Shown in pieces: positions 9,109 to 61,186 of a stretch of 64,000 nt of DNA; positions within the stretch are counted from its first letter, which is position 1; every line of letters begins with the position of its first letter. Source of the stretch: an uncultured Gemmata sp. (GTDB lineage Bacteria > Planctomycetota > Planctomycetia > Gemmatales > Gemmataceae). A program made the translations under genes and the position numbers. The stretch covers positions 1 to 64,000 of the forward strand of contig CALDUT010000002.1 of NCBI GenBank assembly GCA_937924775.1. Reading direction: 5' to 3'. The notes below the pieces were generated by a model. It was not told the DNA's origin and made no database searches. It was given only the letters and a program-made list of their open reading frames with translations.

Positions 9109-9129
9109 ACGCGACTCCATCCGGCGGGT

Positions 9130-10260
9130 TTACCGCCCGGTGCCCAGAAATTCTTTGATACTGCCTACAATGGCGTCCCGATCCGGGATATGACTAACGA
9201 CCACGTTTTCATGTTTCTCCGCCAACTCGAAAACGTGGTGAGCGAATTCGCCACTGCCATAGGGCGATTCGACTTGCCCGTAGCCGAAGAGATTCAACTT
9301 CGGCAGTAAATGATGATGCAGCAGATCCTTGCACTTGGGTACATCATCCCCCCAATTATCACCATCGGAGAAGTGGAAGGCATAAACATTCCACTGGCTG
9401 GGCGGGTAGCGGGCATCGATGATCTTGTGGCACAGTTCATAGGCACTGCTGATCTTCGTACCGCCGCTTTCCCGGGTATGATAGAACGTGTGTTCATCCA
9501 CTTCTTGCGCGACCGCATCGTGAATGATGTAAACGGTTTCCACCCCGTTGTAATGCCGCTTGATCCATGTATCGATCCAGAACGCTTCGATACGGACAAT
9601 CTCCTTCTGTTCGTCGGTCATACTCCCGGAAACGTCCATCATGTAAATGATGACCGCGACCGAGTCGGGCTTGGGGACTTCTTTCCACGAGCGATACTGC
9701 TTATCCTCCCGCACCGGGATCACCACCGGTTGCTGGGGATCGTATGTACCTGCAGCAATTTGACGCTTGAGCGCCCGCTTGAACGTACGCTTGAAGTGCC
9801 GAAGCGATTCCGGGCCGACACTCCGAATGCTGGTGTACTTGTCTTTCTCGGTGACGATGTTTTTCTGGCCACGCGGTTCGATTCGCGGCAGGGCCAGTTC
9901 TTCGCCGAGAATATCGGCCAATTCTTCAAGGGTCAGATCGACCTCCAGAATGTGGCCGCCGGGAGAATCGCCGGCTTGGGGTTCACCCTCGCCGTCTTGC
10001 GGGGCGGTCAGGGGCTGGCCCGGTTGCCCTGGACCAACGCCGACGCCACCGGAGTTCTTCTTGCCAAAGCGGAATTGGGGGGGATTGATGCTCGGCAGAG
10101 GAATCGACACGTAGTCGTTCCCTTTCTTACCGATCATTTCTCCGCGGCTGATGTACTTGGAAAGGTTGCTTTTTACCTTTCCGCGGACAATCTTGCGGAA
10201 CCGCTGCAGGTCTTGTTCGATTTTTTGTCCCACGGCAATCAGGCCTCGGGGGGAATCCAC
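9130..10260 (-). CDS. yeaH: DUF444 / YeaH-like protein with a von Willebrand A-type domain
   Basis: A 376-residue protein. The N-terminus carries KIEQDLQRFRKIVRGKV and the family motif SKYISRGEMIGKKG, followed by a glycine/proline linker. The C-terminal half has a MIDAS-like strand VIIYMMDVSGSMTDEQKE (DxSGS metal site). The later stretch RESGGTKISSAYEL supplies the conserved Thr, and FHFSDGDNWGDD the distal Asp. This is the E. coli YeaH family, whose gene is co-transcribed with the kinase gene yeaG. The start is a GTG at 10260 without an obvious ribosome site; a second GTG twelve codons in (VGQKIEQ) is an alternative. The gene is separated from prkA by 370 bases that contain the SRP RNA. Confidence 0.93.
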   Translation of the reverse strand: MDSPRGLIAVGQKIEQDLQRFRKIVRGKVKSNLSKYISRGEMIGKKGNDYVSIPLPSINPPQFRFGKKNSGGVGVGPGQPGQPLTAPQDGEGEPQAGDSPGGHILEVDLTLEELADILGEELALPRIEPRGQKNIVTEKDKYTSIRSVGPESLRHFKRTFKRALKRQIAAGTYDPQQPVVIPVREDKQYRSWKEVPKPDSVAVIIYMMDVSGSMTDEQKEIVRIEAFWIDTWIKRHYNGVETVYIIHDAVAQEVDEHTFYHTRESGGTKISSAYELCHKIIDARYPPSQWNVYAFHFSDGDNWGDDVPKCKDLLHHHLLPKLNLFGYGQVESPYGSGEFAHHVFELAEKHENVVVSHIPDRDAIVGSIKEFLGTGR

Positions 10261-42863: not shown

Positions 42864-45800
42864 TTAGCGCACCGGCGGCAGGGGCGGAATAACGTTTGCC
42901 GGCGGCGTAATTGCTCCATTCGGGGTAATCGGTCCGTGGGGTGGCACTTCGAGTGTGGGTACCGCGCTGCGGGCTGAGTGGGCCACCGGGAGGAAGTCGC
43001 GGATAGCTCCGAGGCGACCGTCAGGGGTGTGACCAGCGATGATCAGTTCGTAGCCACTGGAAGCATCACCGAGATGGAAGGTCAACGTGACTTGTCCATT
43101 GGTCGGTACAATCACAACCGGTTGCCAGAGGATCGTGTCGGAGGGCTCTCCAGCTTGCGGGAGAGTTTCGGGCGAAGGTTTGGGGGCGGCATACTCCCGA
43201 ACCACAAGTGAAGGCAGAGTGTGAACCGATCCGCGGACCTTCTCCACGGCGTAGAGTTCGATGGCTCGCCGGGTCGTGCTCTTGAATCGTTCCGGCATGG
43301 CCATCGCACGATCGCGGGCCAGATACCCTTCAATGGGAGCCGTCAGGGCCGAATTCCGCAGTGCGGCTTGTTTAGCAGCCAATGCTTGGGCTTGCCGCAG
43401 CGACTCCTCGTGCCGCTGAATCACCATACGAGGAACTTTTTGCACCGCGGCCAGAGAGGACGATCCCTGGTGCGGCACCTGTGTGTTCCGATCAGCCAAA
43501 GCGGGCACCGACCCGACGGACTTCGGCTGTGGCATCGCGACCGAGGACGGAGCCGCCGGCTGTGGGGTGGTGGCGGCAATACTGGGAACCGACTTCGGAG
43601 CTGTAGGGGTGAGGGGATTCGGGCCGGGGAATGCCGCTCCAGTTCCGGAGCCGAATCGGCGCGGATCGGCTGTGTCTACACTCGCCCCATCGCCTTTACG
43701 CGAAAGGAAATGGGGGGCTGTGGCCGGGGGCGTGGAAGGTGGTATTTGCCAACCACCGTCAGATTCCGGCAATCCAGGATGATGGGGAGTTTCTACCGCA
43801 GCTTGACCAACCTGCGATTCGCGGTTCGTGGTAGTAGTTGACGGTGGTTGGAACCCGGTTGTAATGGCACGAGGTGGGGGAGCCAATTCTGGTTCGCGGG
43901 TTTCGGCTGGCGAAGCTACCAAACCCATCTCCTGAGCCGTCGCGGTTTCGCTATAAAGGGATTGCACAGCCACGATCAGAAAAACGGTCAACCCCATTGC
44001 GCCGAGACTACTGAAACCCAGCGGAATACGTGCCGTCGGACGCAGGTAACACGCGAATCCACAGATCAGGGCCAACATAGTGAAGCCGGCGATGCCGAAC
44101 CACGCCCGGCTTTGGAACTGCTGCACCGGCCGCCGGGCAGCGTCCGCTTCGGCTAGCTTTTCGGCTAACCGTTGCTCCGCAGCCTTCAGTTGGTCTTCGG
44201 GGAACCCCGGTGGGTTGTTTCGGGCGGCTTCCAATTGCTCTTGGGCTGCGATCACGGCTTTCGTGGCGGTTTCGTAAAGCGGTGCGTACTTCTGGTATAG
44301 CTCCCGATGCCTCCGAATGGCTGCGGGTTCGGTGCGGGTGGCATATTGTCCGTTTTGCAACATCAATTCGACGACATCGGGGCTTGGCGGCGGTTGGTGA
44401 AGTTTGCCGCCGCGGGCCGGTTGGAACGATTGTTCCACGAATCGCCGCCAGCCTTGCGTCCCTAAGAGCAAGTCGAGGGCTTCCGCGGCGCTGGGATGAT
44501 CTGTGAGCAAAAAGTCGGCGTATTCCAACTCCTCCGGTGTTTTGATTTCTCCGGCCAGAAGGAAGTGCGTGGGCAGCAACCGATCCTTGCGAGCTGGAGC
44601 GATACCGGCGTTCACGGCGGCCGCCCACAAGAGGGCCATCGTGGGCTGCCCCTTTTCATCACTTGCGGTGATGGCGAGGGACAATGCCGCATGGGGATTG
44701 AAAACCGGGCGCGAATTTTCGGTTGTGGCGCGAACGTCGGCGGCAGAAGCCGTAGCCGCCACCGACAATTTGAGCATTTCTCCGGGTTTGCGGAAGACCA
44801 AGCGTTCAGCCACGGGTGTGAGGTCGCCCTGATCGTCCCGTTCCTCGAAGGCGGTGATGCGAACGACACCGCCCCGGGGATCGTTACTGGCCATCAGTTT
44901 CACCACTTGCGGTTGATCCCGCTCGACGAGAACCCGTTGGGTGTCGCTGAGTTTTCCGCGCGTGTACGCGCCGATGATGATTTGACGCGATTGGCCCACG
45001 GAGCTGAGGCGAACACGAATCGGTTCACCGGGTGCGGTGACCGGATCAAGAACCGCCATGGCCAGCCCTTCGGGTTGGGCCTCAGGCAGGGGGAACCCCC
45101 TGTGGCGGGCCACGGCCCCCGGTCCCCCGAGCATGGCCACCGCCGCCCGCGCCACCGGGGCGTCGGTCATAATCGGAGCATAAACACTGGCCGGTGATTC
45201 GAGCTTCAGCCAAACCCGCTGACCGAGTTCCGGCGTGAAGGTGAACGCGGCCAAGCCCCGGCGCGAGCCCGGTTGGCTCGGATCATTGAACGAAGCGACT
45301 TGTGCGAGGGTGCGGCGGCCATCGGTGATGATGCCGCGGAAATTCACCGGCAAGCCTGTGACGGTCGTCGCCCGCACGTAAATTTTCGTTTCGACTCCGG
45401 CAATCAGGGTATCCCCACATTCAGGGAAAAACTCCACCAGTACGCGGTTGCCGATCACCGGAACCCGCTCCACCACCGGCGGCTCGCCTTCGGGGGTGCG
45501 GAACGTAACGTGGACGCGAACATCCCCGTTGGGCACCTCGGCTGGCAGTAGGAACTGAATCCGTGCTTGGCCCTGAGTATCGGTTTGCGGAGCGATTTGA
45601 ACATCAGTCAAAGCGTGGCCATCGACGTCCACCGTGCACGCTTCGACGGGCACACCGGCCATGGGCTGATCGTGCCGGTGCAGCTCGGCCCAAGCTTCGA
45701 CACGATCGCCAGGGGCGTAGGATTCATGGTGGAAGGTAATCCGTTTGCGGTAGCTATCTGGGGAACCCGAACGGACTTGGATCGTGCGTGTGACGGGCAC

Positions 45801-47087
45801 CGGGACGGTCGTGGGGAAGCCGCCGGGGTGGGGCAGTTCGGTCAGTTGCAGCGTGTAGTCGCCGTCAGGCAGGTCGGCCGGCAGAACGAATTCACCGCAA
45901 CCCACCCCACGCACCGGTTGACCATTGGGCAGGCGAACGGGTTCGATCCGTCCATCGACGCTAACGCGGAGCAGATCTGTCGTTCCGGTCAGTTGAAGGC
46001 CGTCGACCGGTTGGTGGTGGGGAGTGAGCAATTCGTATTTGAGGATTTGCTCGCGGCTGGGCGGCTTGAAGGTGATACGGTCGAGTGTGAGGGAGCGGAA
46101 GAACAAGCGTTCGCCCGGGCGGTACACGGCTTTGTCTGTGGTCAGCAGGGTGGTGTAGACCGGACCGGCCAACGGGACGCGTTCTTCGATGGTGCGGGTT
46201 TTGGTTTCTTCATCCACCTGGGCGACCACCAGGTAGAGTTCGGCCTCCGGTTTGACCTTGGCCCAGGCACTGGCGGGCAAACGCACGATGTGCCGGCGTT
46301 CGCCGGTGCGTTCGAGGTTCAGCGGCTGGGAATGGATGACAGCGTCGGTGGCATCGAGTGCGTGAATTTCCGCCACCAGGTGTTTCCGCGTGCTTTCCCA
46401 CGCATCGCGGCGATCGTTGACCACAAGGATGAAGTCATTGGGCGCACCGGGTTGCACGGTAGCGGGTTTCAACACATCGACCGACAAACGCCGGGCCGTG
46501 ACGGTTTCCACCGCGGCCTTTTGTTCTTTCACCCAGCGATCGAGAATCGCGTGTTGGTTTTGTTGGGCCGTGGTGAGTTTGAACTCGGCGTCTTGCAGGG
46601 TTCGCAGCAGGTGGGCCTGCGATTCTTGGGCGGCTTGGCGGAGGCTGTCGGCGTCGCGTTGGGCCACTTCCACTTCGTACTTCGCCTGATGGAATTGCCG
46701 GAACAAACTCACGACAGGCAGCACCGTGCCGGGGATCGCCAGCAACACGGCCGCAGCCACGGCCCAGGGGATCGCCGCGGCCACTCGCTGCGACCAGGAA
46801 CGCCAGCCACGGCCGGCCAGGGGTAGCAGAGCTGGCGTACCCACCGGGGGCGTGGCGGGGAGACTGGGTTGGGGCACCGCGGGCGGTTCGAAGCGGATGT
46901 GGGGAAATGCGGATTTAGCCGCTGTGGCGATCAATCCCTGCCACCGGACCATAGCGGCCCGCTGCGAGGTGCAGGCAGGACAATCCGCCAGGTGTGCATC
47001 GACCGCGGCCCCTTCGGAAGTGTCGAGCAGTCCGTAGAGGTGATCGAGCAACAGGTTTTGGCAATGTTGGCAATTCATCGTGGTCAT
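42864..47087 (-). CDS. Anti-sigma zinc finger fused to a macroglobulin-like ectodomain
   Basis: A 1,407-residue protein. N-terminus: zinc-binding anti-sigma (ZAS/zf-HC2) motif with Cys6, Cys9 and H-L-A-D-C-P-A-C at residues 32-39. A membrane helix follows at about residues 110-130 (VAAAIPWAVAAAVLLAIPG). Then comes a coiled stretch and a large extracytoplasmic beta region with an MG2-type start (TTLLTTDKAVYRPGERLFFR), a further TTVTGLPVNFRGIITDGRR and ITFHHESYAPGDRVEAWAE. Two further membrane helices lie near residues 996-1015 and 1019-1042, and a proline/serine-rich and basic C-terminal part follows. The family is known for zf-HC2 anti-sigma factors; the fusion is seen directly. It follows the ECF sigma gene by about 100 bases and would bind that sigma factor. 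Confidence 0.87.
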   Translation of the reverse strand: MTTMNCQHCQNLLLDHLYGLLDTSEGAAVDAHLADCPACTSQRAAMVRWQGLIATAAKSAFPHIRFEPPAVPQPSLPATPPVGTPALLPLAGRGWRSWSQRVAAAIPWAVAAAVLLAIPGTVLPVVSLFRQFHQAKYEVEVAQRDADSLRQAAQESQAHLLRTLQDAEFKLTTAQQNQHAILDRWVKEQKAAVETVTARRLSVDVLKPATVQPGAPNDFILVVNDRRDAWESTRKHLVAEIHALDATDAVIHSQPLNLERTGERRHIVRLPASAWAKVKPEAELYLVVAQVDEETKTRTIEERVPLAGPVYTTLLTTDKAVYRPGERLFFRSLTLDRITFKPPSREQILKYELLTPHHQPVDGLQLTGTTDLLRVSVDGRIEPVRLPNGQPVRGVGCGEFVLPADLPDGDYTLQLTELPHPGGFPTTVPVPVTRTIQVRSGSPDSYRKRITFHHESYAPGDRVEAWAELHRHDQPMAGVPVEACTVDVDGHALTDVQIAPQTDTQGQARIQFLLPAEVPNGDVRVHVTFRTPEGEPPVVERVPVIGNRVLVEFFPECGDTLIAGVETKIYVRATTVTGLPVNFRGIITDGRRTLAQVASFNDPSQPGSRRGLAAFTFTPELGQRVWLKLESPASVYAPIMTDAPVARAAVAMLGGPGAVARHRGFPLPEAQPEGLAMAVLDPVTAPGEPIRVRLSSVGQSRQIIIGAYTRGKLSDTQRVLVERDQPQVVKLMASNDPRGGVVRITAFEERDDQGDLTPVAERLVFRKPGEMLKLSVAATASAADVRATTENSRPVFNPHAALSLAITASDEKGQPTMALLWAAAVNAGIAPARKDRLLPTHFLLAGEIKTPEELEYADFLLTDHPSAAEALDLLLGTQGWRRFVEQSFQPARGGKLHQPPPSPDVVELMLQNGQYATRTEPAAIRRHRELYQKYAPLYETATKAVIAAQEQLEAARNNPPGFPEDQLKAAEQRLAEKLAEADAARRPVQQFQSRAWFGIAGFTMLALICGFACYLRPTARIPLGFSSLGAMGLTVFLIVAVQSLYSETATAQEMGLVASPAETREPELAPPPRAITTGFQPPSTTTTNRESQVGQAAVETPHHPGLPESDGGWQIPPSTPPATAPHFLSRKGDGASVDTADPRRFGSGTGAAFPGPNPLTPTAPKSVPSIAATTPQPAAPSSVAMPQPKSVGSVPALADRNTQVPHQGSSSLAAVQKVPRMVIQRHEESLRQAQALAAKQAALRNSALTAPIEGYLARDRAMAMPERFKSTTRRAIELYAVEKVRGSVHTLPSLVVREYAAPKPSPETLPQAGEPSDTILWQPVVIVPTNGQVTLTFHLGDASSGYELIIAGHTPDGRLGAIRDFLPVAHSARSAVPTLEVPPHGPITPNGAITPPANVIPPLPPVR

Positions 47088-47190
47088 AGGTTCCGGCGGA
47101 ATAGGGCTAGCGGGGGCGCGAATTCCGCGAAGTCAGAGTTCACCCGGTTGAGGGCGTGGTCATTTTTTGAACAAATAGTCAGGTGTATCC

Positions 47191-47841
47191 CTAGTCAGGA
47201 CTATCCTCGGTCGTTTGGGGGTTCAGTATGCGACGCAACTTCATGAGGGCGGCGCGCATTTGCGTTTTCACGGTTCCGACCGGAGCATTGCGGATTTCGG
47301 CGATCTGTTCGTAGGTGAGCTCGCCGTTTTGCCGCAGCAGGAACACTTCTTTTTCGTCTTGCCGCAGTTGGCTGATCGCTTGCCGGAGGCGGTCGAGGGC
47401 CTCTTGATCTTCGACCGATTGGCCGGGGGCCTCGTCCCGGGTTGGGAGCATGACATCATCCTCCGGAAGCGGGCGGCTTTTGCGGTGCCAGGCACTGCGT
47501 TGGTAGTCTTTGGCGGCGTTCAGCCCGACGCGGAAAATCCAAGCCCGGAGGTTGTGAACATCCGGGAGGCTCGCGCGGGCCCGCCAGCACTTCAGGAACG
47601 CTTCTTGGGCCGCGTCATGGGCATCATCGGCATTGCCCAGTAGGTACAGGAGGGTACTGACCAATTCATCCCGAATTTGATTAAACATCGCGACGAGTAA
47701 TTCGTCCGGTGCTGGGGCTTGTTCTGGCGCGCACTGGCAATTCCGGCTCGCCTCAGAGGGCGTACCGGTGGAGGGAGCGACCGGCACCGGATCCGTGCCC
47801 GCGTTCGGCCGCACAATCGGTGGCGCGCCGGATTTGGCCAT
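47191..47841 (-). CDS. ECF RNA polymerase sigma factor
   Basis: A 216-residue protein with a classic TAGGAGGAT ribosome site. A disordered N-terminus of about 45 residues is followed by region 2 (LYLLGNADDAHDAAQEAFLK, LPDVHNLRAWIFRVGLNAAK) and region 4 (LRQDEKEVFLLRQNGELTYE, QIAEIRNAPVGTVKTQMRAA). Region 2 hosts the core-binding and -10 contacts, region 4 the -35 contacts. It is the upstream gene of the pair with the anti-sigma ectodomain protein, so a cell-surface signal controlled by that ectodomain is the likely input (inference). Confidence 0.94.
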   Translation of the reverse strand: MAKSGAPPIVRPNAGTDPVPVAPSTGTPSEASRNCQCAPEQAPAPDELLVAMFNQIRDELVSTLLYLLGNADDAHDAAQEAFLKCWRARASLPDVHNLRAWIFRVGLNAAKDYQRSAWHRKSRPLPEDDVMLPTRDEAPGQSVEDQEALDRLRQAISQLRQDEKEVFLLRQNGELTYEQIAEIRNAPVGTVKTQMRAALMKLRRILNPQTTEDSPD

Positions 47842-51912: not shown

Positions 51913-53544
51913 TCAGAAATCGTTGCCGATCACTTCGCCGCCGCCTTTGGTAATGAGGCCGTGCAACGTCTGTTTGGAAGGCAGTTTGTTCAGCGTCCGC
52001 ACGGAACCATCAAACATGACCATCTGCGCGTGCCTGTGAACAGCCATACCGATCAACTTGGTAATGTCTTTGTCGGTGTCGTATTCCAGCTCGTCGGGTT
52101 TGGTCCACGGGACGGCTTCCGCTGCGGCGACCACCATCAGAGTATTGGACGTGCCGTCGGTAATATCGGCCAACGTGGTCCCCATGACCCAATCAAAGCC
52201 AGCCCCATTCCCGACGAAAACGCGATAATGGGTGGTGGTGGCATCGGGTTTGGCTCCAGGCCCGCGGTACACGGCCGGCATTTTCGCCAATAACTTCTTG
52301 TTGTGTTCGCTATCCCAGGGTTCGTCGAGCTTGAATTCTTTGTACAACGCCTCCTGATCGAGGTAAGGAAGGATGAGAACCCGCCAGCTAAGAAGCGGTT
52401 TGCCTCTTTTGTCACAAACGGCGGCGGGTGGAAATGTCTTGTGGGTGTCGGCGTAGCTGTGCATGGCGAGCGCAATCTGCTTGAGGTTATTCGCGGAAAG
52501 CAGAATTTCTGAGTTGCGTTCGAGATGCAGCAAAGCCGCTCGGTAAGCCGACGCGAGGGGGAGACCTTCGAGGGGGAAGGTCGCGGTGAGAGAGGCCCGC
52601 TTACCATTGACCGAATATTTCGCGTCTTGGGCCACGTGGAGGGCGGTTTGGGCCAATTTCACTAAGTCTTTGAAATTGGCATCCTTTTCGGCGGATTTTT
52701 CAACATCGGGCAATTCGCGGCGAATCATTTCTGTGAGCAACTCCACCAACGCCGCCAATGCTTTTTCGGCATCGACTGCCTGAGCTTCCCGCTTGGTGTT
52801 CACATGGACTTGAATCTGGAGGGAGTGTTGCAAATCGAGGGTGGCGTGGATGGCATTGGCTCGCAAAAGGGGTTGGAAGGGCCGCAGCGGATCGGGCAGA
52901 TCGTCGCGTCGGAATTCTTCGGGGAGCAAGGCTGGAGCCGCCGCCACAACCAGCGTATGTTTGCCTCGGGCGGCCGCATGGATGGCATCAGTGAGGTAGC
53001 CGGTGGCCTCGGCGGGCTGGGGTTTCCCATAAGTGGCTTCATCGAGCCGCAAAAGAATCAACGCCGTGTTTTCGGCGATCGTTTGAATTTTCGGTTGGGC
53101 ACTGCGACCTATGAGGGCTGTGAAGCCGGCCGTGACCTTTTCGGCATCAAAGGGTTTGGAGAATTTCACAATGACGCCCAGTTCTTGGATGTCGGCATTC
53201 GGGGCCATTTGAGGGACAAAAAGCGTGAGCGTTTGAATGTCGTCGATTTTTGTCCCGAGGATTTCCTGGGCGAAATTTTCGATCTGGGCAAAACTTTTCG
53301 GTTCGGCTTGGCGGAGCGATTGGGCCATTTTGCTGGTCCACACCGAAGCGATTTCCGCGTGGAGAAAGAGCGCGACATTGTGGGGCACATAGCGCCACTC
53401 GGCCGGTAACGGGTCAGTTTTTGACCGATCCGCTTGTGCGTTCAGAAGTTGTGACGCCAAGAAAGGCCCCGCTACCAGCCACAGGGCAACAAACACGCCA
53501 CCCCAACCGGCGGAAAAAGCAGCGGAACACGGTGTGATACGCAT
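51913..53544 (-). CDS. DUF1559 domain protein with signal anchor
   Basis: A 543-residue protein. CGGAG lies seven bases before ATG 53544. An N-terminal hydrophobic segment (GVFVALWLVAGPFLASQLL) serves as signal or anchor. A helical/beta N-terminal region of about 300 residues follows (VALFLHAEIASVWTSKMAQS). The DUF1559 domain then begins NNLKQIALAMHSYADTHKTF with PPAAVCDKRGKPLLSWRVLI and LPYLDQEALYKEF. It ends ITDGTSNTLMVVAAAEAVPW and the H-x9-DG type motif HRHAQMVMFDGSVRTLNKLP. DUF1559 proteins are hallmarks of planctomycetes, normally with an N-terminal prepilin-like motif. Here that motif is not at the N-terminus, so the domain is appended to another protein. Function unknown. Confidence 0.87.
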   Translation of the reverse strand: MRITPCSAAFSAGWGGVFVALWLVAGPFLASQLLNAQADRSKTDPLPAEWRYVPHNVALFLHAEIASVWTSKMAQSLRQAEPKSFAQIENFAQEILGTKIDDIQTLTLFVPQMAPNADIQELGVIVKFSKPFDAEKVTAGFTALIGRSAQPKIQTIAENTALILLRLDEATYGKPQPAEATGYLTDAIHAAARGKHTLVVAAAPALLPEEFRRDDLPDPLRPFQPLLRANAIHATLDLQHSLQIQVHVNTKREAQAVDAEKALAALVELLTEMIRRELPDVEKSAEKDANFKDLVKLAQTALHVAQDAKYSVNGKRASLTATFPLEGLPLASAYRAALLHLERNSEILLSANNLKQIALAMHSYADTHKTFPPAAVCDKRGKPLLSWRVLILPYLDQEALYKEFKLDEPWDSEHNKKLLAKMPAVYRGPGAKPDATTTHYRVFVGNGAGFDWVMGTTLADITDGTSNTLMVVAAAEAVPWTKPDELEYDTDKDITKLIGMAVHRHAQMVMFDGSVRTLNKLPSKQTLHGLITKGGGEVIGNDF

Positions 53545-53877: not shown

Positions 53878-54831
53878 ATGGTCCGTTCGATGCAACGGCC
53901 CTTGGGTGGGGCACTGTTGGTTTTGGGCGTCCTGAGCTTATTGCCCTGGGCGGGATTAGTCAAAGCCCAACAACCAGCAACGGCCACGAACAAAATGGCG
54001 CGGTTCCGAGTCGCTCCGGGGGGTTATACCTACATTCCCCCGGGAGCCTTACGCCCCGGTTTCCAACAACCAGGCACCGCCAACATGGGCAATGCCGGCA
54101 ATGCCGGTAATGTTGGTAATGCTGGTAATGCCGGCAATATTGGAAACATTGGGAATGTTGGGAATATTGGAAATATCGGTTTCGGTGGCCAAATGGGCTT
54201 TGGCGGTCAGATGGGCTTTAGAGGGCAATTCGGCTTCGGATCGTTTGGGATGGGTGGCTTTGGTGGGATGATGGGTCAGTTCGGCATGGGTGGTTTTGGC
54301 GGCATGATGGGTCAGTTCGGCATGGGCATGGGCATGATGGGGATGAGTGGTATGGGGATGATGGGCATGGGAGGCATGATGGGGATGGGCGGTAACTTCG
54401 CAGGATTCCCACAAATCGGCACCTACTTGGGTGGCATGGGCGGTATGGGTGGTATGGGGATGATGGGGATGGGCAGGATGGGGATGGGTGGCATGGGGAT
54501 GATGGGGATGGGTATGATGGGGATGGGTGGCATGGGCATGATGGGGATGGGTGGCATGAACATGATGGGGATGGGCATGATGGGGATGGGTGGCATGAAC
54601 ATGATGGGGATGGGTGGTATGAACATGATGGGGATGATGGGCCAATTGGGTATGGGTGGTATCGGGATGATGGGCCAAATGGGCTTTGGTGGGATGATGA
54701 GCCAAATGGGCTTTGGTGGTGGTTTTGGTCAGTTTGGCCAGTTGGGAATCGGTGGTGGATTTGGTGGCGGGTTGGGCCAATTTGGGATCGGTGGCAAGCA
54801 GTTTGGCTTTGCCGGAGGACCCGCGTACTGA
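53878..54831 (+). CDS. Gly/Met-rich exported repeat protein, paralogue 1
   Basis: A 317-residue protein beginning MVRSMQRPLGGALLVLGVLS, a signal peptide ending near KAQQ. ATG 53878 has GAGG six bases upstream; ATG 53872 and GTG 53866 are alternatives. After the signal come RFRVAPGGYTYIPPGALRPG and a GN section (NMGNAGNAGNVGNAGNAGN). Then QMGFGG/QFGFGS units, a long GM section (MGGMGMMGMGMMGMG type), the block GGNFAGFPQIGTYLGGMGGM, and a final GGKQFGFAGGPAY. The mature chain is chiefly Gly and Met with few charges and no Cys. No family recognised. An imperfect terminator hairpin follows. Two paralogues follow on the same strand. Confidence 0.87.
   Translation: MVRSMQRPLGGALLVLGVLSLLPWAGLVKAQQPATATNKMARFRVAPGGYTYIPPGALRPGFQQPGTANMGNAGNAGNVGNAGNAGNIGNIGNVGNIGNIGFGGQMGFGGQMGFRGQFGFGSFGMGGFGGMMGQFGMGGFGGMMGQFGMGMGMMGMSGMGMMGMGGMMGMGGNFAGFPQIGTYLGGMGGMGGMGMMGMGRMGMGGMGMMGMGMMGMGGMGMMGMGGMNMMGMGMMGMGGMNMMGMGGMNMMGMMGQLGMGGIGMMGQMGFGGMMSQMGFGGGFGQFGQLGIGGGFGGGLGQFGIGGKQFGFAGGPAY
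54085..54830 (+). repeat. GN and GM coding repeats of paralogue 1
   Basis: Short units related to GGCATGGGGATGATGG are repeated many times with small variations, coding GM-rich protein. The preceding section repeats GGCAATGCCGG-like units coding GN. Similar blocks fill the other two paralogues. This is minisatellite-like coding DNA. Confidence 0.85.
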
Positions 54832-54868
54832 TCTGATCGCCCGCACAGCGCGGTCGCCTCTTCAGCAT

Positions 54869-54937
54869 CCTCCCCCAACTTAGGCCACTGAATCCTTATA
54901 CGGATTTGGGCCGGGTTGTGGGAGTTTGTTGTTTTCA
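54869..54937 (+). terminator. Imperfect terminator hairpin after paralogue 1
   Basis: CCTCCCCCAACTTAGGCC with CTGAATCC on the left pairs with GGATTTGGGCCGGGTTGTGG and GAG on the right over a short TTATAC loop, with several mismatches. It is followed by TTTGTTGTTTT. The same elements recur after paralogue 2, so the terminator was duplicated with the gene. Confidence 0.65.
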
Positions 54938-55216
54938 GGAACCGTCACGTGGTTCTGTAATGCCATCGATGTTGGAAACTAGTCACTCATAACAACTGAC
55001 CATCGAATTCGAATGCAGCGTTGGCCGGTTTGAAAAGAAACTATTGCCCGGATGCGTAACGATAGTGAGTGTTTCTGACATTCGCTTTGGCTTACGTGCG
55101 AGTTGACGGTCTTTCCGGGCCAAGGAATATTTGCTCAGGGTGTATTCTCCGCGAGTGGTCGCGGTTAACTCTTGAAGAACCGGAGTTGCATGTCTGATTT
55201 CCATGAGGTTCCAGCC
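54938..55216. promoter_or_regulatory. Leader region of Gly/Met-rich paralogue 2
   Basis: No gene. It contains an inverted repeat CCGCGAGTGGTCGCGG at 55149-55164 and, just before the start, the leader TGATTTCCATGAGGTTCCAG, which is repeated almost exactly before paralogue 3 (with its own inverted repeat at 56484-56499). Shared control is likely. Confidence 0.5.
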
Positions 55217-56086
55217 ATGTTTCGCAAACTTCTTCGTTCTCTGTTGGCGGTGACTGTCGCCCTTGGCACCACGGCTCTTCTTCTTGAGACTGGCTTAGTC
55301 CAGGCGCAACAGAACACTACCAACAAACAAGCCAACGCACGGAACTTGCCGCTTTTCCGCGTAGCTCCGGGCGGATACACCTACGTCCCGCCAGGGGTAT
55401 GGCGTCCGAGCATGCAAGCCCCGGGCACTGCTAATATGGGAAACTCTGGCAATGCAGGAAATATTGGTAACATGGGAAATCTAGGGAATTTAGGAAATAT
55501 TGGTAATCTGGGTAATATTGGTCAATTCGGTCAACTGGGACAGTTCGGGCAATTTGGTTTCGGCGGTCAATTGGGCTTTAGTGGCCAATTCGGCTTCGGC
55601 TCCTTGGGTATGGGGGGCTTTGGTCAATGGGGGATGGGAGCGTTCGGGATGATGGGCCGGTTCGGCATGGGTATGGGCATGATGGGGATGATGGGCCAGT
55701 TCGGCATGGGCATGGGCATGATGGGGATGGGTGGCAACTTCGCGGGATTTCCGCAAATTGGTACCTATCTCGGGGGCATGGGTGGTATGGGAGGAATGAT
55801 GGGCATGGGGATGATGGGGATGATGGGGATGATGGGTCAATTTGGGATGGGTGGATTGGGAATGCTCGGTCAATTTGGGATGAGTGGATTGGGGATGTTA
55901 GGTCAGTTTGGTGGTATCGGCGGTTTGGGTGCCCTGGGACAATTCGGTTTTGGTGGTATCGGTGGGTTTGGTCAACTCGGCCAATTCGGGATTGGTGGTT
56001 TTGGTCAGTTTGGTCAATTCGGCCAATTCGGGATTGTTGGTTTTGGTGGTAAGCAGTTTGGTTTTGCCGGCGGACCTGCTTACTAA
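55217..56086 (+). CDS. Gly/Met-rich exported repeat protein, paralogue 2
   Basis: A 289-residue protein from ATG 55217, which has GAGG eight bases upstream in a leader shared with paralogue 3; the longer frame from 55172 is not needed. Signal peptide MFRKLLRSLLAVTVALGTTA ending near LVQAQQ. Then NLPLFRVAPGGYTYVPPGVW, a GN section, Q(L/F)G(Q/F)G units (GQFGQLGQFGQFGFGGQLGF), a GM section, the shared block GGNFAGFPQIGTYLGGMGGM and the shared end GGKQFGFAGGPAY. More Phe/Gln-rich than paralogue 1. Positioned in tandem with paralogues 1 and 3, spacing about 385 and 465 bases. Function unknown. Confidence 0.88.
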   Translation: MFRKLLRSLLAVTVALGTTALLLETGLVQAQQNTTNKQANARNLPLFRVAPGGYTYVPPGVWRPSMQAPGTANMGNSGNAGNIGNMGNLGNLGNIGNLGNIGQFGQLGQFGQFGFGGQLGFSGQFGFGSLGMGGFGQWGMGAFGMMGRFGMGMGMMGMMGQFGMGMGMMGMGGNFAGFPQIGTYLGGMGGMGGMMGMGMMGMMGMMGQFGMGGLGMLGQFGMSGLGMLGQFGGIGGLGALGQFGFGGIGGFGQLGQFGIGGFGQFGQFGQFGIVGFGGKQFGFAGGPAY

Positions 56087-56123
56087 TCTGATCGCCCAAA
56101 CCTAGCAACCTCGTCTTCAGCTG

Positions 56124-56190
56124 CCTCCTCCAAACTTGGCCAGCGAATCCCTGTGCGGATTCTGGCCAACTCGGGGGAGGTTGCCTCTTT
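56124..56190 (+). terminator. Terminator after paralogue 2 with a duplicated right arm
   Basis: CCTCCTCCAAACTTGGCCAG with CGAATCC (56124-56150) pairs with GGATTCTGGCCAACTCGGGG (from 56157, ending GAGG at 56180), followed by TTGCCTCTTT. The right arm, ATTCTGGCCAACTCGGGGGA and flanks, recurs exactly over 24 bases at 56234-56257, where it is followed by TTCCTTTTTT. The same left arm could pair with either copy. Confidence 0.7.
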
Positions 56191-56550
56191 ACTGTCTTGG
56201 CTTGTGTGTTCTCCACAGTATCGCTCTGTACGAATTCTGGCCAACTCGGGGGAGGTTCCTTTTTTGAGTGGTCCATATGCCGTTACTGTTACACTCCAAG
56301 TTGCGGTGAAGATTTTGGGACAGCGCAAAATCCCGACCAACCCCCTCATTTGCACAAAAACTGGTAGTTTCGAAAAATTTTTCTGATTTGGGCGCGCAAG
56401 TCGCGCCGGCTGTGGGCATCCACTTTTGATGGGTTTCTGTGAAAGTGTTTCGGAGTTGAAGGGTATCTTCCTGAGTGTTTCCTCCGCGATGGCACGCGGT
56501 TCATACGCGATGAAAGGGATTTGTTTTTTGATTTCCATGAGGTTCCAGCC
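56191..56550. promoter_or_regulatory. Leader region of Gly/Met-rich paralogue 3
   Basis: No gene. It holds the second terminator right arm (56234-56257), the inverted repeat CCGCG-ATGGCA-CGCGG at 56484-56499, and the leader TGATTTCCATGAGGTTCCAG shared with paralogue 2. Confidence 0.5.
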
Positions 56551-57609
56551 ATGTTTTACAAGCTCCTGCGTTCTCTGATGGCGTTGACCGTTGCTCTGGG
56601 TGCCGCGGCCTTCCTCCTTCAAACCGGCTTGGTTCAAGCTCAGCAGAACAACAACAATAACAAGCAAGCGAATGCCAGAAACCTTCCTCTCTTTCGAGTC
56701 GCACCCGGTGGGTTCACTTACATTCCTCCGGCGCCGTGGCGTCCCGCGATGCTTGATCCGGGTGGAGCCAATATGGGGAACGTTGGAAACAACGTCGGAA
56801 ATGCTGGTAACAACATGGGCAACAATATGGGAAATCTTGGAAATTTCGGTCAGTTGGGTCAGATGGGTTTCGGTGGCCAATTGGGCTTCGGTGGGCAATT
56901 CGGTTTCGGTGGTCAGATGGGCTTTGGGGGTCAGTTCGGGTTTGGATCGTTTGGGATGGGTGGTTTTGGCGGCATGATGGGGATGATGGGTCAGTTTGGG
57001 ATGGGTGGTTTTGGCGGCATGATGGGGATGATGGGTCAGTTTGGGATGGGCGGTTTTGGCGGCATGATGGGGATGGGTGGTATGGGAGGTATGAGTGGCA
57101 TCGGTGGCATGGGAGGCATGAACGGCAACATCGTGATGAAGCCGACCATCGGCACCTATCTGGGTGGCATGGGTGGTATGGGAGGGATGATGGGCATGGG
57201 CATGGGCATGATGGGTATGGGCATGATGGGGATGGGCATGATGGGGATGATGGGCCAGTTCGGCATGGGTATGGGTATGATGGGTATGATGGGCCAATTC
57301 GGCATGGGTATGGGCATGATGGGCCCGATGGGGATGATGGGCATGGGGATGATGGGTCAGATGGGCATGATGGGGATGATGGGTCAGTTTGGGATGGGAA
57401 CAATGGGGATGATTGGTCAGTTTGGCATGGGCATGGGGATGATGGGTCCAATGGGCATGATGGGGATGGGCGGATTGGGAATGCTCGGCCAGTTTGGCAT
57501 GGGTGGTTTCGGTATGATGGGTCAGTTGGGGATTGGTGGAATTGGCGGATTTGGCCAATTCGGTTTTGGTGGTAAGCAGTTTGGATTCTCAGGGGGCACC
57601 GGTTACTAA
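56551..57609 (+). CDS. Gly/Met-rich exported repeat protein, paralogue 3
   Basis: A 352-residue protein from ATG 56551 in the same leader context as paralogue 2. Signal peptide MFYKLLRSLMALTVALGAAA ending near LVQAQQ, then NLPLFRVAPGGFTYIPPAPW and a GN section (GNVGNNVGNAGNNMGNNMGN). Repeated QLGFGG/QFGFGG units follow, then a long GM section (GMGMGMMGMGMMGMGMMG), here with the block NGNIVMKPTIGTYLGGMGGM in place of the FAGFPQ version, and a final GGKQFGFSGGTGY. Longest of the three. Intrinsic terminator follows, then the ECF sigma gene. Confidence 0.88.
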   Translation: MFYKLLRSLMALTVALGAAAFLLQTGLVQAQQNNNNNKQANARNLPLFRVAPGGFTYIPPAPWRPAMLDPGGANMGNVGNNVGNAGNNMGNNMGNLGNFGQLGQMGFGGQLGFGGQFGFGGQMGFGGQFGFGSFGMGGFGGMMGMMGQFGMGGFGGMMGMMGQFGMGGFGGMMGMGGMGGMSGIGGMGGMNGNIVMKPTIGTYLGGMGGMGGMMGMGMGMMGMGMMGMGMMGMMGQFGMGMGMMGMMGQFGMGMGMMGPMGMMGMGMMGQMGMMGMMGQFGMGTMGMIGQFGMGMGMMGPMGMMGMGGLGMLGQFGMGGFGMMGQLGIGGIGGFGQFGFGGKQFGFSGGTGY

Positions 57610-57639
57610 CCTCGCCTCTTACTATAACATAATGCGACG

Positions 57640-57670
57640 AGGCCCGTGGCTTCGGTCACGGGCCTTCTAA
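57640..57670 (+). terminator. Intrinsic terminator after paralogue 3
   Basis: GGCCCGTG at 57641-57648 and CACGGGCC at 57657-57664 form a perfect 8-base stem over GCTTCGGT, followed by TTCTAACTTT. It separates the paralogue from the sigma gene and shows that the sigma gene does not start as far upstream as 57646. Confidence 0.8.
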
Positions 57671-57744: not shown

Positions 57745-58290
57745 GTGATTGGAACCGAGAGTGTACTGACGCGAATCGCGGCGGGCGATCCAACGGCGGT
57801 GCCGGAATGTATCGCCCGCTACGGGGCCTTGGTATGGTCGCTAGCGCGCCGTTTCCTGGGCAACACCACCGATGCTGAAGATGCTGTTCAGGATGTGTTC
57901 ATTGATTTGTGGAAAAACGCCGCCCGCTACGACCCGGCGCGAGCCTCGGAACCGACTTATATCACCATGATCGCCCGGCGGCGCTTGATCGACCGCAAAC
58001 GCCGCGCCGGTCGCACGGTGACGGCGCAACCCTTACCTGAAGAAACCATCGGAGGGGGCGGCAACAATTCCCACCTGGAGATACAAGATGAAGCCGCCAA
58101 AGCCGCGGCAGCATTGAACGAACTGCGCGAGGAGGAACGACGGGTTATACAAATGGCGGTTTATCAAGGTTTAACACACGAGGAAATTGCCGCGACAACG
58201 GGTTTACCCATAGGAACAGTGAAAACGCACATCCGCCGCGGACTTATCCGCGTCCGTGAACGTCTGAGTGTCGGGGGAGGTGGCCGATGA
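57745..58290 (+). CDS. ECF RNA polymerase sigma factor
   Basis: A 181-residue protein. The GTG start at 57745 (VIGTESVLTRIAAGDPTAVP) is chosen because the frame upstream runs through the terminator. AAGGGA lies upstream; a TTG at 57727 is an alternative. Region 2: CIARYGALVWSLARRFLGN, DAEDAVQDVFIDLWKNAARY. Region 4: ELREEERRVIQMAVYQGLTH, EEIAATTGLPIGTVKTHIRR. Its stop overlaps the next gene's start (ATGA). Sits directly after the three Gly/Met-rich genes and would be the natural candidate to control them, but no binding site is shown. Confidence 0.93.
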   Translation: MIGTESVLTRIAAGDPTAVPECIARYGALVWSLARRFLGNTTDAEDAVQDVFIDLWKNAARYDPARASEPTYITMIARRRLIDRKRRAGRTVTAQPLPEETIGGGGNNSHLEIQDEAAKAAAALNELREEERRVIQMAVYQGLTHEEIAATTGLPIGTVKTHIRRGLIRVRERLSVGGGGR

Positions 58291-59048
58291 CGACCGATCC
58301 CCGACGCGAACGGCTCGATGAGTTGCTCACACTTCAGGCGATTGAAGGGCTGAGCCCAGATGAGGTAAGGGAATTGAACCAACTGCTCGAATTACTCCCT
58401 GGTGAGGATAAAGAATCGTTGGAATTAGCGGCCGCGGCGCTACATTTGGCCTTCAGCCCACCGCCGGAGACGATGCCCAGTTCTGTCGCCGAAAAGCTCT
58501 ACACCGCGGCCATCCAGTTCATGCCACGGCCGGTGGTTTCGCCAGCAACTCTGACAACCCGCGTGGGATGGCTGTCGTGGTCTGGTTGGGCTGTCGCCGC
58601 CACGTTGTTGATCGCTCTGCTCTACACGCAGTGGCCACGACCGGCCATGGCTCCCAACCCGCCGTCGCTGGCCGAATTACGCGACCAACTCAAACCGCGG
58701 GCTGCGGAGTTTGTGGGCCAAAAAAATCAGGTCATCGCCACGATCGTTTGGAGTGATCAGGAGCAAATCGGCTACATGGAAGTGAAAGGGCTGCCGCCGA
58801 TCGATCCCCAAGCGGGGACTTACCAACTGTGGATTGTGGACGGCGAGCGGCCGCAAGGCTCTCCCCCGGTGGATGGCGGGGTGTTCCGCGTAAATCCAGA
58901 TGGCACGGTGTTGGTGCCCATTCGCCCGCCCATTCAAGTAAAGAAAGCCGCGGCCTTCGCCATCACTCGTGAAACCGACCCGGGCGGGGTTGTGGTCAGC
59001 CAAGTGAAACCTGAAGATTACGAAGTGGTTCTCACGAAAAAAGGTTGA
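58287..59048 (+). CDS. RskA-type anti-sigma factor
   Basis: A 253-residue single-pass protein: a helical cytoplasmic N-terminus (RLDELLTLQAIEGLSPDEV), a membrane helix (WAVAATLLIALLYTQW, about residues 100-115), then an extracytoplasmic RskA-like beta domain (IVWSDQEQIGYMEVKGLPPI, YQLWIVDGERPQGSPPVDGG, GVFRVNPDGTVLVPI, AFAITRETDPGGVVVS). The 4-base overlap with the sigma gene supports a sigma/anti-sigma operon. Such factors hold the sigma factor at the membrane until a signal triggers release by proteolysis (family knowledge). Confidence 0.92.
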   Translation: MTTDPRRERLDELLTLQAIEGLSPDEVRELNQLLELLPGEDKESLELAAAALHLAFSPPPETMPSSVAEKLYTAAIQFMPRPVVSPATLTTRVGWLSWSGWAVAATLLIALLYTQWPRPAMAPNPPSLAELRDQLKPRAAEFVGQKNQVIATIVWSDQEQIGYMEVKGLPPIDPQAGTYQLWIVDGERPQGSPPVDGGVFRVNPDGTVLVPIRPPIQVKKAAAFAITRETDPGGVVVSQVKPEDYEVVLTKKG

Positions 59049-59179: not shown

Positions 59180-61186
59180 TCAATCCACGTACGGGTCGGC
59201 TCCGAGGTCTTGGAGCATTTCCTGGCGTTGTTTATCGTAGTGCATCAGGTCAAACCGTTGCCGTTTGTGACGGGCTTCGACGCGGCGTTGGGCCAAGCGA
59301 AAGAGTGGGGCGAAAGAATTCCAATCGCGGTGACCGCCGGCTTGGCCGAGGGCCATCAACTCGCGGTGTTTGGCCGGCCCCAGTCCTTCCAGCAGTTGAT
59401 CTTCCAGCGACAGCATAAACTGGGCACTGCCAGGGTCGCCTTGACGGCCGGCTCGGCCGATCAATTGCCGGTCGATGCGTGCTGCTTCGTGCCGTTCGGT
59501 GCCGATAACGTGTAATCCGCCGGCCTCGGCCACACCCGGCCCCAATTTGATGTCGGTACCGCGACCGGCCATGTTGGTGGCCACCGTGACGGTTCCCGGT
59601 TGGCCCGCTTGGGCCACCACTTCGGCTTCGTGTTGGTTTTGCTCTGCGTTCAGGACTTGATGCAGGATACCCGCGGCCGTCAGTTTGGCACTGATTTTCT
59701 TGGAGGCTTCGACGGTGCGTGTCCCAATGAGCACCGGTCGCCCTTGTTGCAACATTTCTTGCGTGGTTCTCACCACGGCGTTGAATTTCGCATCTTCCGT
59801 GGGGAAAACCCGATCGGGCAGAACCTGCCGTCGCGAGGGGCGGTTGGTGGGGACAGCGGTTGTCCAAAGGCGGTACACCTTCCGCAGCTCCCAGAAGTTG
59901 GGCATCAGCGTACCCGACATCCCGGCGAGCTTTTCGTACAACCGGTAGAAGTTCTGGAAGGTGATTTGCGCTGCGTGCGTGCTAGGCATATTGATCGGCA
60001 CGCCTTCTTTGGCTTCGACCGCCTGATGCAGGCCATCCCGCCAATGGCGATCGGGCATGGGCCGCCCGGTGCCTTCATCAATGATGACGATTTTGTTGTC
60101 GCTGTTGACCATATAGTGTTGGTCGCGGGCGAAGCGATAGTGGGCATGCAAAGCCCGCTCCACCGCTTCAAGCAGTTTATCCATCGCTTTGGCATGCTTG
60201 CCCGTGGGCGGGTTGGAATAGCGTACGAGTTGTTTTCCGCCGTCGGTCAACTCGATTTTGTCTTTGCGCAAATTCATGGTGAAATGCTCGTCGCGGCGCA
60301 TTTGCCGTGCGAGTTGATCGGCCCACTTGAAAACGATTTGCTCCTCCGGTTCGGCCAACCGGGTGGGATTGGCGATAATCAGCGGCGTTTTCGCTTCGTC
60401 AATGAAGATGCTATCGGCTTCGTCCACGATGGCATAATGGAGGCCGCGTTGGACCCGGGGGTCCATGCGGCTACCCGAACCGAGCCACGCCGACCAGAAC
60501 GGGGCGGTTTGGGCCTGCCCACCGCGGAGTTTCAGCCGATCGCGGAGAAAGTCGAAGCCGAATTCCGCGGCCGTACCGTAGGTGATGTCGGCCTTGTAAG
60601 CGGCGATTCGTTGGCCGTCTTCCATGCGTTGTTGTAGCACGCCCACGGTCAGGCCGAGTTTTTGGTACACCGGGCCCATCCATTCGGCGTCCCGTTTGGC
60701 TAAGTAATCGTTGACGGTGGTGACGTGAACGCCCTTGCCGGCCAGAGCGTTCAGATAAGCCGGGGCTGAGGCGGAAACAGTTTTCCCTTCCCCGGTCGCT
60801 AATTCCACCAAGCCACCGTAGTGCATGATCACTCCCGCGGCCAATTGGACATCGAACGGACGGATGCCCAGCGTGCGTTGAATCGACACGCTGACCAGAC
60901 CGAACGCCTCCGGCAACAGTTTGTTGAGATCCCATTTCCCTCGGGCTTTGCCGCGGAGTTCCATGCTTTTGGCCAGCAGTTTGTCGTCGGAATAATCCCG
61001 AAACAACTGTTCGTAGTAGCGTATCCGCGGGATTACCAACGCGGCTTTGGCCAGGCGACGCTGCCACGGCATACCGACTTGGGCCAACAGTACATTCCGC
61101 GGCCAACTCCCCAATCGGCCGGGCACGTTTTCGATGGTACGAACCGGGACTTCTTCAGCATAAGGGAGCGCTTCGGCCGTACTCAT
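59180..61186 (-). CDS. secA: Shortened SecA-type preprotein translocase ATPase
   Basis: A 668-residue SecA-like ATPase (canonical bacterial SecA is about 800-900). Walker A in LVELATGEGKTVSA (K135, T136), then HVTTVNDYLAKRDAEWMGPV, DITYGTAAEFGFDFLRDRL, the DEAD-type VDEADSIFIDEAKTPLIIA, GMSGTLMPNFWELRKVYRL, VTVATNMAGRGTDIKLGPGV and motif VI RQLIGRAGRQGDPGSAQFML. After motif VI the chain continues only through the first scaffold helix (RRVEARHKRQRFDLMHYDKQ) and stops, so helical wing, IRA1 and the C-terminal zinc tail appear to be absent. Start ATG 61186 has AGGA upstream. A leader RNA with a terminator lies between it and the promoter side. It may be an accessory SecA. Confidence 0.9.
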   Translation of the reverse strand: MSTAEALPYAEEVPVRTIENVPGRLGSWPRNVLLAQVGMPWQRRLAKAALVIPRIRYYEQLFRDYSDDKLLAKSMELRGKARGKWDLNKLLPEAFGLVSVSIQRTLGIRPFDVQLAAGVIMHYGGLVELATGEGKTVSASAPAYLNALAGKGVHVTTVNDYLAKRDAEWMGPVYQKLGLTVGVLQQRMEDGQRIAAYKADITYGTAAEFGFDFLRDRLKLRGGQAQTAPFWSAWLGSGSRMDPRVQRGLHYAIVDEADSIFIDEAKTPLIIANPTRLAEPEEQIVFKWADQLARQMRRDEHFTMNLRKDKIELTDGGKQLVRYSNPPTGKHAKAMDKLLEAVERALHAHYRFARDQHYMVNSDNKIVIIDEGTGRPMPDRHWRDGLHQAVEAKEGVPINMPSTHAAQITFQNFYRLYEKLAGMSGTLMPNFWELRKVYRLWTTAVPTNRPSRRQVLPDRVFPTEDAKFNAVVRTTQEMLQQGRPVLIGTRTVEASKKISAKLTAAGILHQVLNAEQNQHEAEVVAQAGQPGTVTVATNMAGRGTDIKLGPGVAEAGGLHVIGTERHEAARIDRQLIGRAGRQGDPGSAQFMLSLEDQLLEGLGPAKHRELMALGQAGGHRDWNSFAPLFRLAQRRVEARHKRQRFDLMHYDKQRQEMLQDLGADPYVD

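What the first reader, a model, noticed from the sequence alone, without database searches (positions are those of the whole stretch)
53878..57609. Three tandem exported proteins built of Gly and Met repeats
All three share signal peptide type, an R-V-A-P-G-G-x-T-Y box, GN repeats, GM repeats (MGGMGMMGMG type), a TYLGGMGGM block and a GGKQFGF end. Met content is extremely high and Cys is absent. I know of no family with this layout. Candidate roles are metal (copper or silver) capture by Met residues, redox buffering, or a silk-like surface layer. These roles are inference.
Basis: partly seen in the sequence, partly recalled or inferred. Interest (0 to 1): 0.9.

Follow-up and report, generated by a model that had tools for sequence, protein, structure and literature searches.

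The report
Secreted glycine-repeat protein family of Gemmata
Three neighbouring genes encode exported, uncharged, glycine-rich repeat proteins of a previously unnamed family found only in Gemmata and close relatives; the striking methionine content is a changeable filler, so they are more likely structural (silk- or collagen-like) surface material than metal catchers.

Summary
Three tandem genes (53878-54831, 55217-56086, 56551-57609) encode exported proteins that are 32-36% Gly and 12-22% Met, with no Cys or His. They share constant boxes: signal peptide plus RVAPGGxTYxPP, PxIGTYLGG, and a C-terminal GGKQFGF[AS]GGxxY.

They belong to an unnamed family found in every well-assembled genome of the genus (Gemmata) and in two sister genera. 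A few weak matches occur in other Gemmataceae and none elsewhere in 297 genomes of the class. The boxes are under purifying selection. The filler is not: the orthologue of gene 1 in a sister species has 1.2% Met instead of 20.8%, and most members have under 2%. Metal capture or redox buffering by Met is therefore not the conserved function.

Conserved features are near-total absence of acidic residues, Gly every third residue in many members, a 13-residue C-terminal tag, and a neighbourhood of a divergent DUF1559 gene with, often, an ECF sigma/RskA pair downstream. A new promoter-like element, usually followed by a covarying leader hairpin, occurs once per genome and only before these genes.

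Best reading: an abundant extracytoplasmic structural (matrix or fibre) protein. Expression, location and assembly are untested.

The parts
51913..53544 (-). Divergent exported protein with C-terminal DUF1559 (PF07596), conserved partner upstream of the family's main locus
   Evidence: Pfam; adjacent in about 20 loci of genus g1 and genus g32, 40-68% identity in nearly all
53878..54831 (+). Gly/Met-repeat exported protein 1 (P0001, 317 aa); RVAPGGYTY box begins 54007
   Evidence: orthologue in G012 has 1.2% Met
55217..56086 (+). Gly/Met-repeat exported protein 2 (P0002, 289 aa)
56394..56419 (+). Promoter-like element GCGCAAGT-N14-GCAT, 157 bp before the ATG of gene 3
   Evidence: best-scoring site of the window on both strands for a matrix built without this genome; only exact match in the window
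56551..57609 (+). Gly/Met-repeat exported protein 3 (P0003, 352 aa)
57142..57177 (+). Central constant box of protein 3, PTIGTYLGGMGG (PxIG[ST]YLGG in relatives)
57568..57606 (+). C-terminal constant box of protein 3, GGKQFGFSGGTGY (same in protein 1 at 54790-54828 and protein 2 at 56045-56083)
   Evidence: kept in 37 of 55 members; many of the rest are cut by contig ends or frameshifted; no amino-acid change vs G012 in genes 1 and 3
57639..57666 (+). Strong stem-loop GAGGCCCGTGGCTTCGGTCACGGGCCTT between gene 3 and the sigma gene (terminator or 3' mRNA stabiliser)
   Evidence: present once per genome, at this place, in 9 genomes that carry the sigma
57745..58290 (+). ECF sigma factor (start GTG 57745 likely; the longer ORF from 57646 begins inside the stem-loop)
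   Evidence: Pfam Sigma70_r2/r4; 72-93% identical orthologues next to the family
58287..59048 (+). Anti-sigma factor, one transmembrane segment, RskA_C extracytoplasmic domain
   Evidence: PF10099 E 1e-12; conserved with the sigma

Best explanation
These are Sec-exported, nearly charge-free, glycine-rich repeat proteins that act as building material outside the cytoplasm of Gemmata-type planctomycetes: a periplasmic or extracellular matrix, fibre or coat. Shown here: a cleavable-type signal peptide and short constant boxes at the N-terminus, middle and C-terminus are conserved, while the Gly-X-X / Gly-Gly-X filler between them exchanges Met, Phe, Gln, Leu, Ile and Gly freely and changes length. 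Also shown: the main locus has a fixed neighbourhood and its own cis element. Inferred: the filler gives physical properties (flexible, hydrophobic, self-associating), the C-terminal tag and boxes nucleate or dock assembly, and output is matched to envelope state through the neighbouring ECF sigma/anti-sigma pair and by stable mRNA. Met in this species is one of several tolerated fillers, not the active group.
For: Conserved signal peptide and boxes in 55 members. Present in 17 of 19 genomes of the genus (the two misses are 65-68% complete), 2/2 of genus g8 and 4/6 of g32. Filler turnover with fixed ends between sister species. Acidic residues 0-2 in all but one of 40 complete members, Gly 22-60% or more. 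Gly period 3 in the window's proteins and several relatives; one relative passes the Pfam collagen-repeat cut-off (45.5 bits vs 27.2). 1-6 copies per genome, often in tandem, as for many structural gene families. A promoter-like element found exactly once in each of 12 genomes, always before a member; a leader model with one strong hit per genome in the same set less G012, plus G005; stem-loop after the gene. ECF sigma plus RskA next door in 9 genomes.
Against: No expression, localisation or assembly data. AlphaFold gives no fold (mean pLDDT 43.8), which fits a disordered polymer but proves nothing. No known anchor motif. The sigma link is not strict: five genomes (G001, G009, G014, G015, G132) keep the promoter-like element without a close sigma orthologue, and a strong stem-loop separates the window's gene 3 from the sigma gene. 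Gly period 3 is absent in many Gly>55% members.
Confidence: 0.58

Rival explanations
1. Met-rich metal (Cu/Ag) scavenger: clustered thioether sulfurs bind Cu(I) or Ag(I) outside the cytoplasm, under ECF control by metal stress.
For: 34-79 Met per protein with many MxM and MxxM spacings and a predicted exported location. Met enrichment occurs in two separate lineages, genus g1 (G000, G012) and g8 (G025, G057).
Against: The orthologue in the sister species has 4 Met of 340, and members at the same locus in other species have 0-2% Met. No His or Cys. None of the neighbouring proteins tested is recognisable as a metal protein. Met-rich members occur in the genomes of lower G+C (Spearman -0.53).
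Confidence: 0.07
2. Redox-buffering or redox-switched condensate: surface Met residues are oxidised and reduced, changing self-association, as proposed for Met-rich low-complexity domains in eukaryotes.
For: Met fraction of 21-22% in a low-complexity, uncharged chain. Reviews describe Met-rich domains whose condensation is redox-controlled (abstracts of PMC8394241, PMC9312190).
Against: Met is not conserved in the family, so at best a recent species-specific trait. No periplasmic Met-sulfoxide reductase gene was seen among the neighbours tested.
Confidence: 0.08
3. Collagen-like or polyglycine-II fibre: Gly-X-X stretches form triple helices or PGII bundles that make a defined fibre rather than an amorphous matrix.
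For: Uninterrupted GXX runs of 17-22 units in the window's proteins and Met-poor relatives. Pfam collagen above cut-off in one relative, just below it in P0001 and P0002.
Against: Pro is nearly absent from the repeats. The runs are interrupted and many Gly>55% members show no period 3. AlphaFold gives no such structure. Gly-Gly-X stretches in spider silk are reported as disordered, mostly non-beta (PMC5187823).
Confidence: 0.17
4. Selfish or neutral repeat expansion in dispensable genes with no cellular role.
For: Imperfect DNA tandem arrays in all three genes. Filler diverges fast. Some copies in relatives look frameshifted (G013, G017, G129).
Against: Strong purifying selection on both ends, one or more copies in every well-assembled genome of the genus, a dedicated conserved leader element and conserved order.
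Confidence: 0.08

Closest known systems
Bacterial collagen-like proteins (Scl1/Scl2, Lcl; Pfam PF01391)
   Same: Exported, Gly-X-X repeats of variable length between constant ends; one relative scores above the Pfam cut-off
   Different: No Pro-rich GPX triplets, no LPXTG anchor, no globular head; NCBIfam Scl/Lcl models score far below cut-off (47.6 vs 325 bits); window proteins are below the Pfam cut-off
Silk Gly-Gly-X / plant glycine-rich structural proteins
   Same: Long uncharged Gly-X and Gly-Gly-X filler, constant terminal regions, rapid change of filler
   Different: No sequence relation; no poly-Ala blocks; only about 300 residues; bacterial
Mycobacterial PE_PGRS proteins
   Same: Exported glycine-rich repeat families, multi-copy and lineage-restricted (from general knowledge)
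   Different: No PE domain; different repeats (GGAGG type in PGRS); unrelated bacteria
Met-rich copper/silver binding proteins (CopC/PcoE/SilE type)
   Same: Exported, Met clusters in this species
   Different: No His, Met not conserved in relatives, no metal gene neighbourhood

Membership tests
Collagen-like proteins (PF01391) | Score above the Pfam gathering cut-off | tested here: not met
   P0001 24.8 and P0002 25.3 vs cut-off 27.2, P0003 no match; one G008 relative passes with 45.5
Collagen-like proteins (PF01391) | Uninterrupted Gly at every third residue over a long stretch | tested here: inconclusive
   runs of 17-21 units but only 56-60% of the repeat region covered
Collagen-like proteins (PF01391) | Triple helix | not testable with these tools
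   AlphaFold monomer model of low confidence; needs circular dichroism or diffraction
Scl/Lcl adhesins | NCBIfam model cut-off, LPXTG anchor | tested here: not met
   12.8 bits vs 325 for P0002, none for P0001 and P0003; C-terminus is GGKQFGF[AS]GGxxY
Met-rich Cu/Ag chaperones | Conserved Met (with His) metal ligands among homologues | tested here: not met
   Met 20.8% vs 1.2% in orthologues; no His
Silk-like structural protein | Self-assembly into fibre or layer outside the cell | not testable with these tools
   only composition, signal peptide and constant ends are compatible
ECF sigma / RskA-type anti-sigma pair | Sigma70 regions 2 and 4; transmembrane anti-sigma with RskA_C | tested here: met
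   alignments

The most novel reading that the evidence does not exclude
A new class of bacterial protein polymer: a secreted glycine-repeat material in which three short constant boxes direct assembly while the filler is chemically exchangeable (Met, Phe, Gln or Gly), made under a dedicated single-target leader element, forming the envelope matrix or fibres of Gemmata cells; in the Met-rich species the material would also be redox-switchable.
Probability: 0.25. Interest if true: 0.8.

Novelty: new variant of a known kind. Interest (0 to 1): 0.52.

Why it matters
Gemmata and relatives have unusual, debated cell envelopes, and little is known of their structural proteins. A small, lineage-restricted, multi-copy exported family with its own regulatory element is a concrete and testable candidate for such material. 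The natural exchange of filler between orthologues is a ready-made experiment on which residues matter in low-complexity protein materials.

Tried and rejected
Metal or redox function by Met: rejected as the conserved role by orthologue comparison. Thermophily as the cause of high Met: 16S rRNA G+C of this genome is 0.557, no higher than Met-poor relatives. A dedicated accessory SecA: the small SecA next to the cluster is present in all 14 Gemmataceae tested, including genomes in which no family member was found, and is distant from the cluster in most of those checked. ECF sigma as the sole reader of the promoter-like element: not strict, five genomes have the element without a close sigma orthologue. 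Known RNA family in the leader: no Rfam match. RNAalifold on the unrefined MAFFT leader alignment found no pairs; pairs appear only when each leader is folded on its own, with hairpin ends chosen by eye, so the covariation count leans towards the structure. Structure prediction gave nothing usable. Literature: no paper on this family found in the held library; no supplementary proteome table could be opened.

Full report
Observation. The three ORFs are real and at the given coordinates. They are 317, 289 and 352 aa, 36/32/35% Gly and 21/12/22% Met, with no Cys and no His. Each has a signal peptide ending V-[KQ]-A|Q, the box RVAPGGxTY[IV]PP, (GNx)n, Gly/Met/Phe/Gln repeats, (P)xIGTYLGGMGG, further repeats, and GGKQFGF[AS]GG[PT][AG]Y as the last 13 residues. 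The long minus-strand ORFs rich in His-Pro over the same DNA are the mechanical antisense of ATG-GGN codons.

A family, and where it occurs. With P0003 alone, 12 of 99 related genomes matched. A profile of the N-terminus (signal peptide plus first box, A1) found members in 24 of 95 genomes of the family: 17 of 19 in the window's own genus (the other two are only 65-68% complete), 2 of 2 in genus g8 and 4 of 6 in g32, plus one weak match elsewhere, with 1-6 copies each. A wider profile (A4) over 297 genomes of the class hit 26, all in the same taxonomic family, three of them weak. The genus is Gemmata: one relative's locus falls on the contig of Gemmata sp. IIL30, with matching contig length and coordinates. 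No Pfam or NCBIfam model names the family.

What is conserved and what is not. The signal peptide, first box, central PxIG[ST]YLGG and C-terminal GGKxxGF[SAG]Gxx[YNQ] persist, whereas the filler does not. The counterpart of gene 1 in sister genome G012 is first in the same locus, with an N-terminus 84% identical, N-terminal dN 0.11 against dS 1.77, and no amino-acid change in the last 16 codons. It has 4 Met in 340 residues against 66 in 317 here. Across 40 complete members only seven have more than 10% Met, and 32 have 2.5% or less. Met-rich members lie in the genomes of lower G+C (Spearman -0.53). Nearly all members have 0-2 acidic residues. This removes Met chemistry as the conserved function and points to the physical properties of an uncharged, Gly-rich, hydrophobic chain.

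Repeat geometry. In the window's proteins and several relatives Gly falls on every third residue well above shuffled controls, with GXX runs of 17-22 units. Many members with Gly above 55% show no such period. One relative exceeds the Pfam collagen cut-off. Pro is nearly absent from the repeats, so a true collagen helix is doubtful; PGII or silk-like disorder are alternatives. Gly-Gly-X segments of dragline silk are reported as disordered and mainly non-beta (PMC5187823). AlphaFold gave mean pLDDT 43.8, with only the signal helix confident.

Neighbourhood. The main locus has a constant plan: a DUF1559 exported protein on the other strand, then one to three family genes, and in nine genomes (G000, G002, G006, G007, G008, G010, G012, G013, G017) an ECF sigma factor and an RskA-type anti-sigma. 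Extra copies elsewhere in the genomes, and those of genus g8, lack these neighbours. A small SecA follows in this genome, G012 and G007, but all Gemmataceae tested have it, so it is not specific.

A dedicated cis element. Counting words in 50 upstream regions showed GCGCAAGT in 17 (0.1 expected) and GTTGCAT in 13 (0.5 expected), joined as GCGCAAGT-N11-GTTGCAT about 145-160 bp before the ATG. A matrix made without this genome puts its best site of the whole window, both strands, at 56394, 157 bp before gene 3. The exact pattern occurs 12 times in 35 genomes, once per genome, each time before a family gene; the reversed pattern occurs once. In 12 of 16 leaders a hairpin starts about 37-39 nt from the start of the element, with many two-sided changes and G-U pairs. 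A covariance model gave one strong hit (E < 1e-4) per genome in 12 genomes, all before a member, six of them the sequences it was built from; the next best hits were at E of about 1e-3. The window and G012 keep the first part but not the hairpin. Spacing fits an ECF promoter followed by an mRNA 5' hairpin. The sigma is probably not its only reader, because five genomes have the element without a close sigma orthologue. After the last family gene comes a stem-loop (57639-57666 here) that is unique in each of nine genomes. It may end or stabilise the message and keep sigma expression low (inference).

Mechanism. Shown: conserved boxes and signal peptide, filler exchange, restriction to Gemmataceae, fixed locus, unique leader element. 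Inferred: export by Sec; assembly outside the cytoplasm driven by Gly-rich filler and guided by the constant boxes; abundance secured by stable mRNA; control tied to envelope state where the ECF pair is present. I put 58% on an extracytoplasmic structural role, of which a defined collagen- or PGII-like fibre is one form. Work on a related species reports that gene families in this taxon grew by duplication and that new paralogues are expressed (PMC8567305), but nothing there names this family.

Novelty. The family seems undescribed in the libraries and papers held here. In kind it is a variant of secreted glycine-repeat structural proteins. What is unusual is the combination of fixed short boxes, freely exchanged filler (including 22% Met) and a single-target leader element.

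Noticed in passing
L200, L192, L222, L221, L223, L224, L195, L202, L194 (leaders before family genes in relatives); element at window 56394: A promoter-like element GCGCAAGT-N11-GTTGCAT followed by a covarying 5' leader hairpin, found once per genome and only before this family; hairpin missing in the window's genome. No Rfam entry found for the window's leader region.
   Followed up: partly
window 57639-57666: Stem-loop GGCCCGTGGC-nnn-GGTCACGGGCC between the last Gly-rich gene and the ECF sigma gene, exactly one copy in each of nine genomes.
   Followed up: partly
window 59180-61186 (-): A short SecA (668 aa) present beside a long (about 1300 aa) SecA in all 14 Gemmataceae genomes tested; two SecA types as a family trait.
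   Followed up: partly
window 51913-53544 (-): DUF1559 domain at the C-terminus of a 543-aa exported protein, the most constant neighbour of the Gly-rich genes; often a second DUF1559 gene (about 31% identical) follows. Function unknown.
   Followed up: partly
L030 about 7640-9150; L038 8482-9442; L078; L097: Apparently frameshifted copies of family genes in G013, G017 and G129, some in near-complete assemblies; sequencing error, pseudogenes or slippage not resolved.
   Followed up: no
window 42864-47841 (-): A second ECF sigma (47191-47841) next to a 1407-aa protein with an N-terminal zf-HC2 anti-sigma domain and an MG2 (alpha-2-macroglobulin type) domain: an unusual anti-sigma fusion.
   Followed up: no
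window 54049-54846 (-) and 56083-57558 (-): Long antisense ORFs rich in His-Pro-His; explained as mechanical complements of ATG-GGN repeats, not genes.
   Followed up: yes
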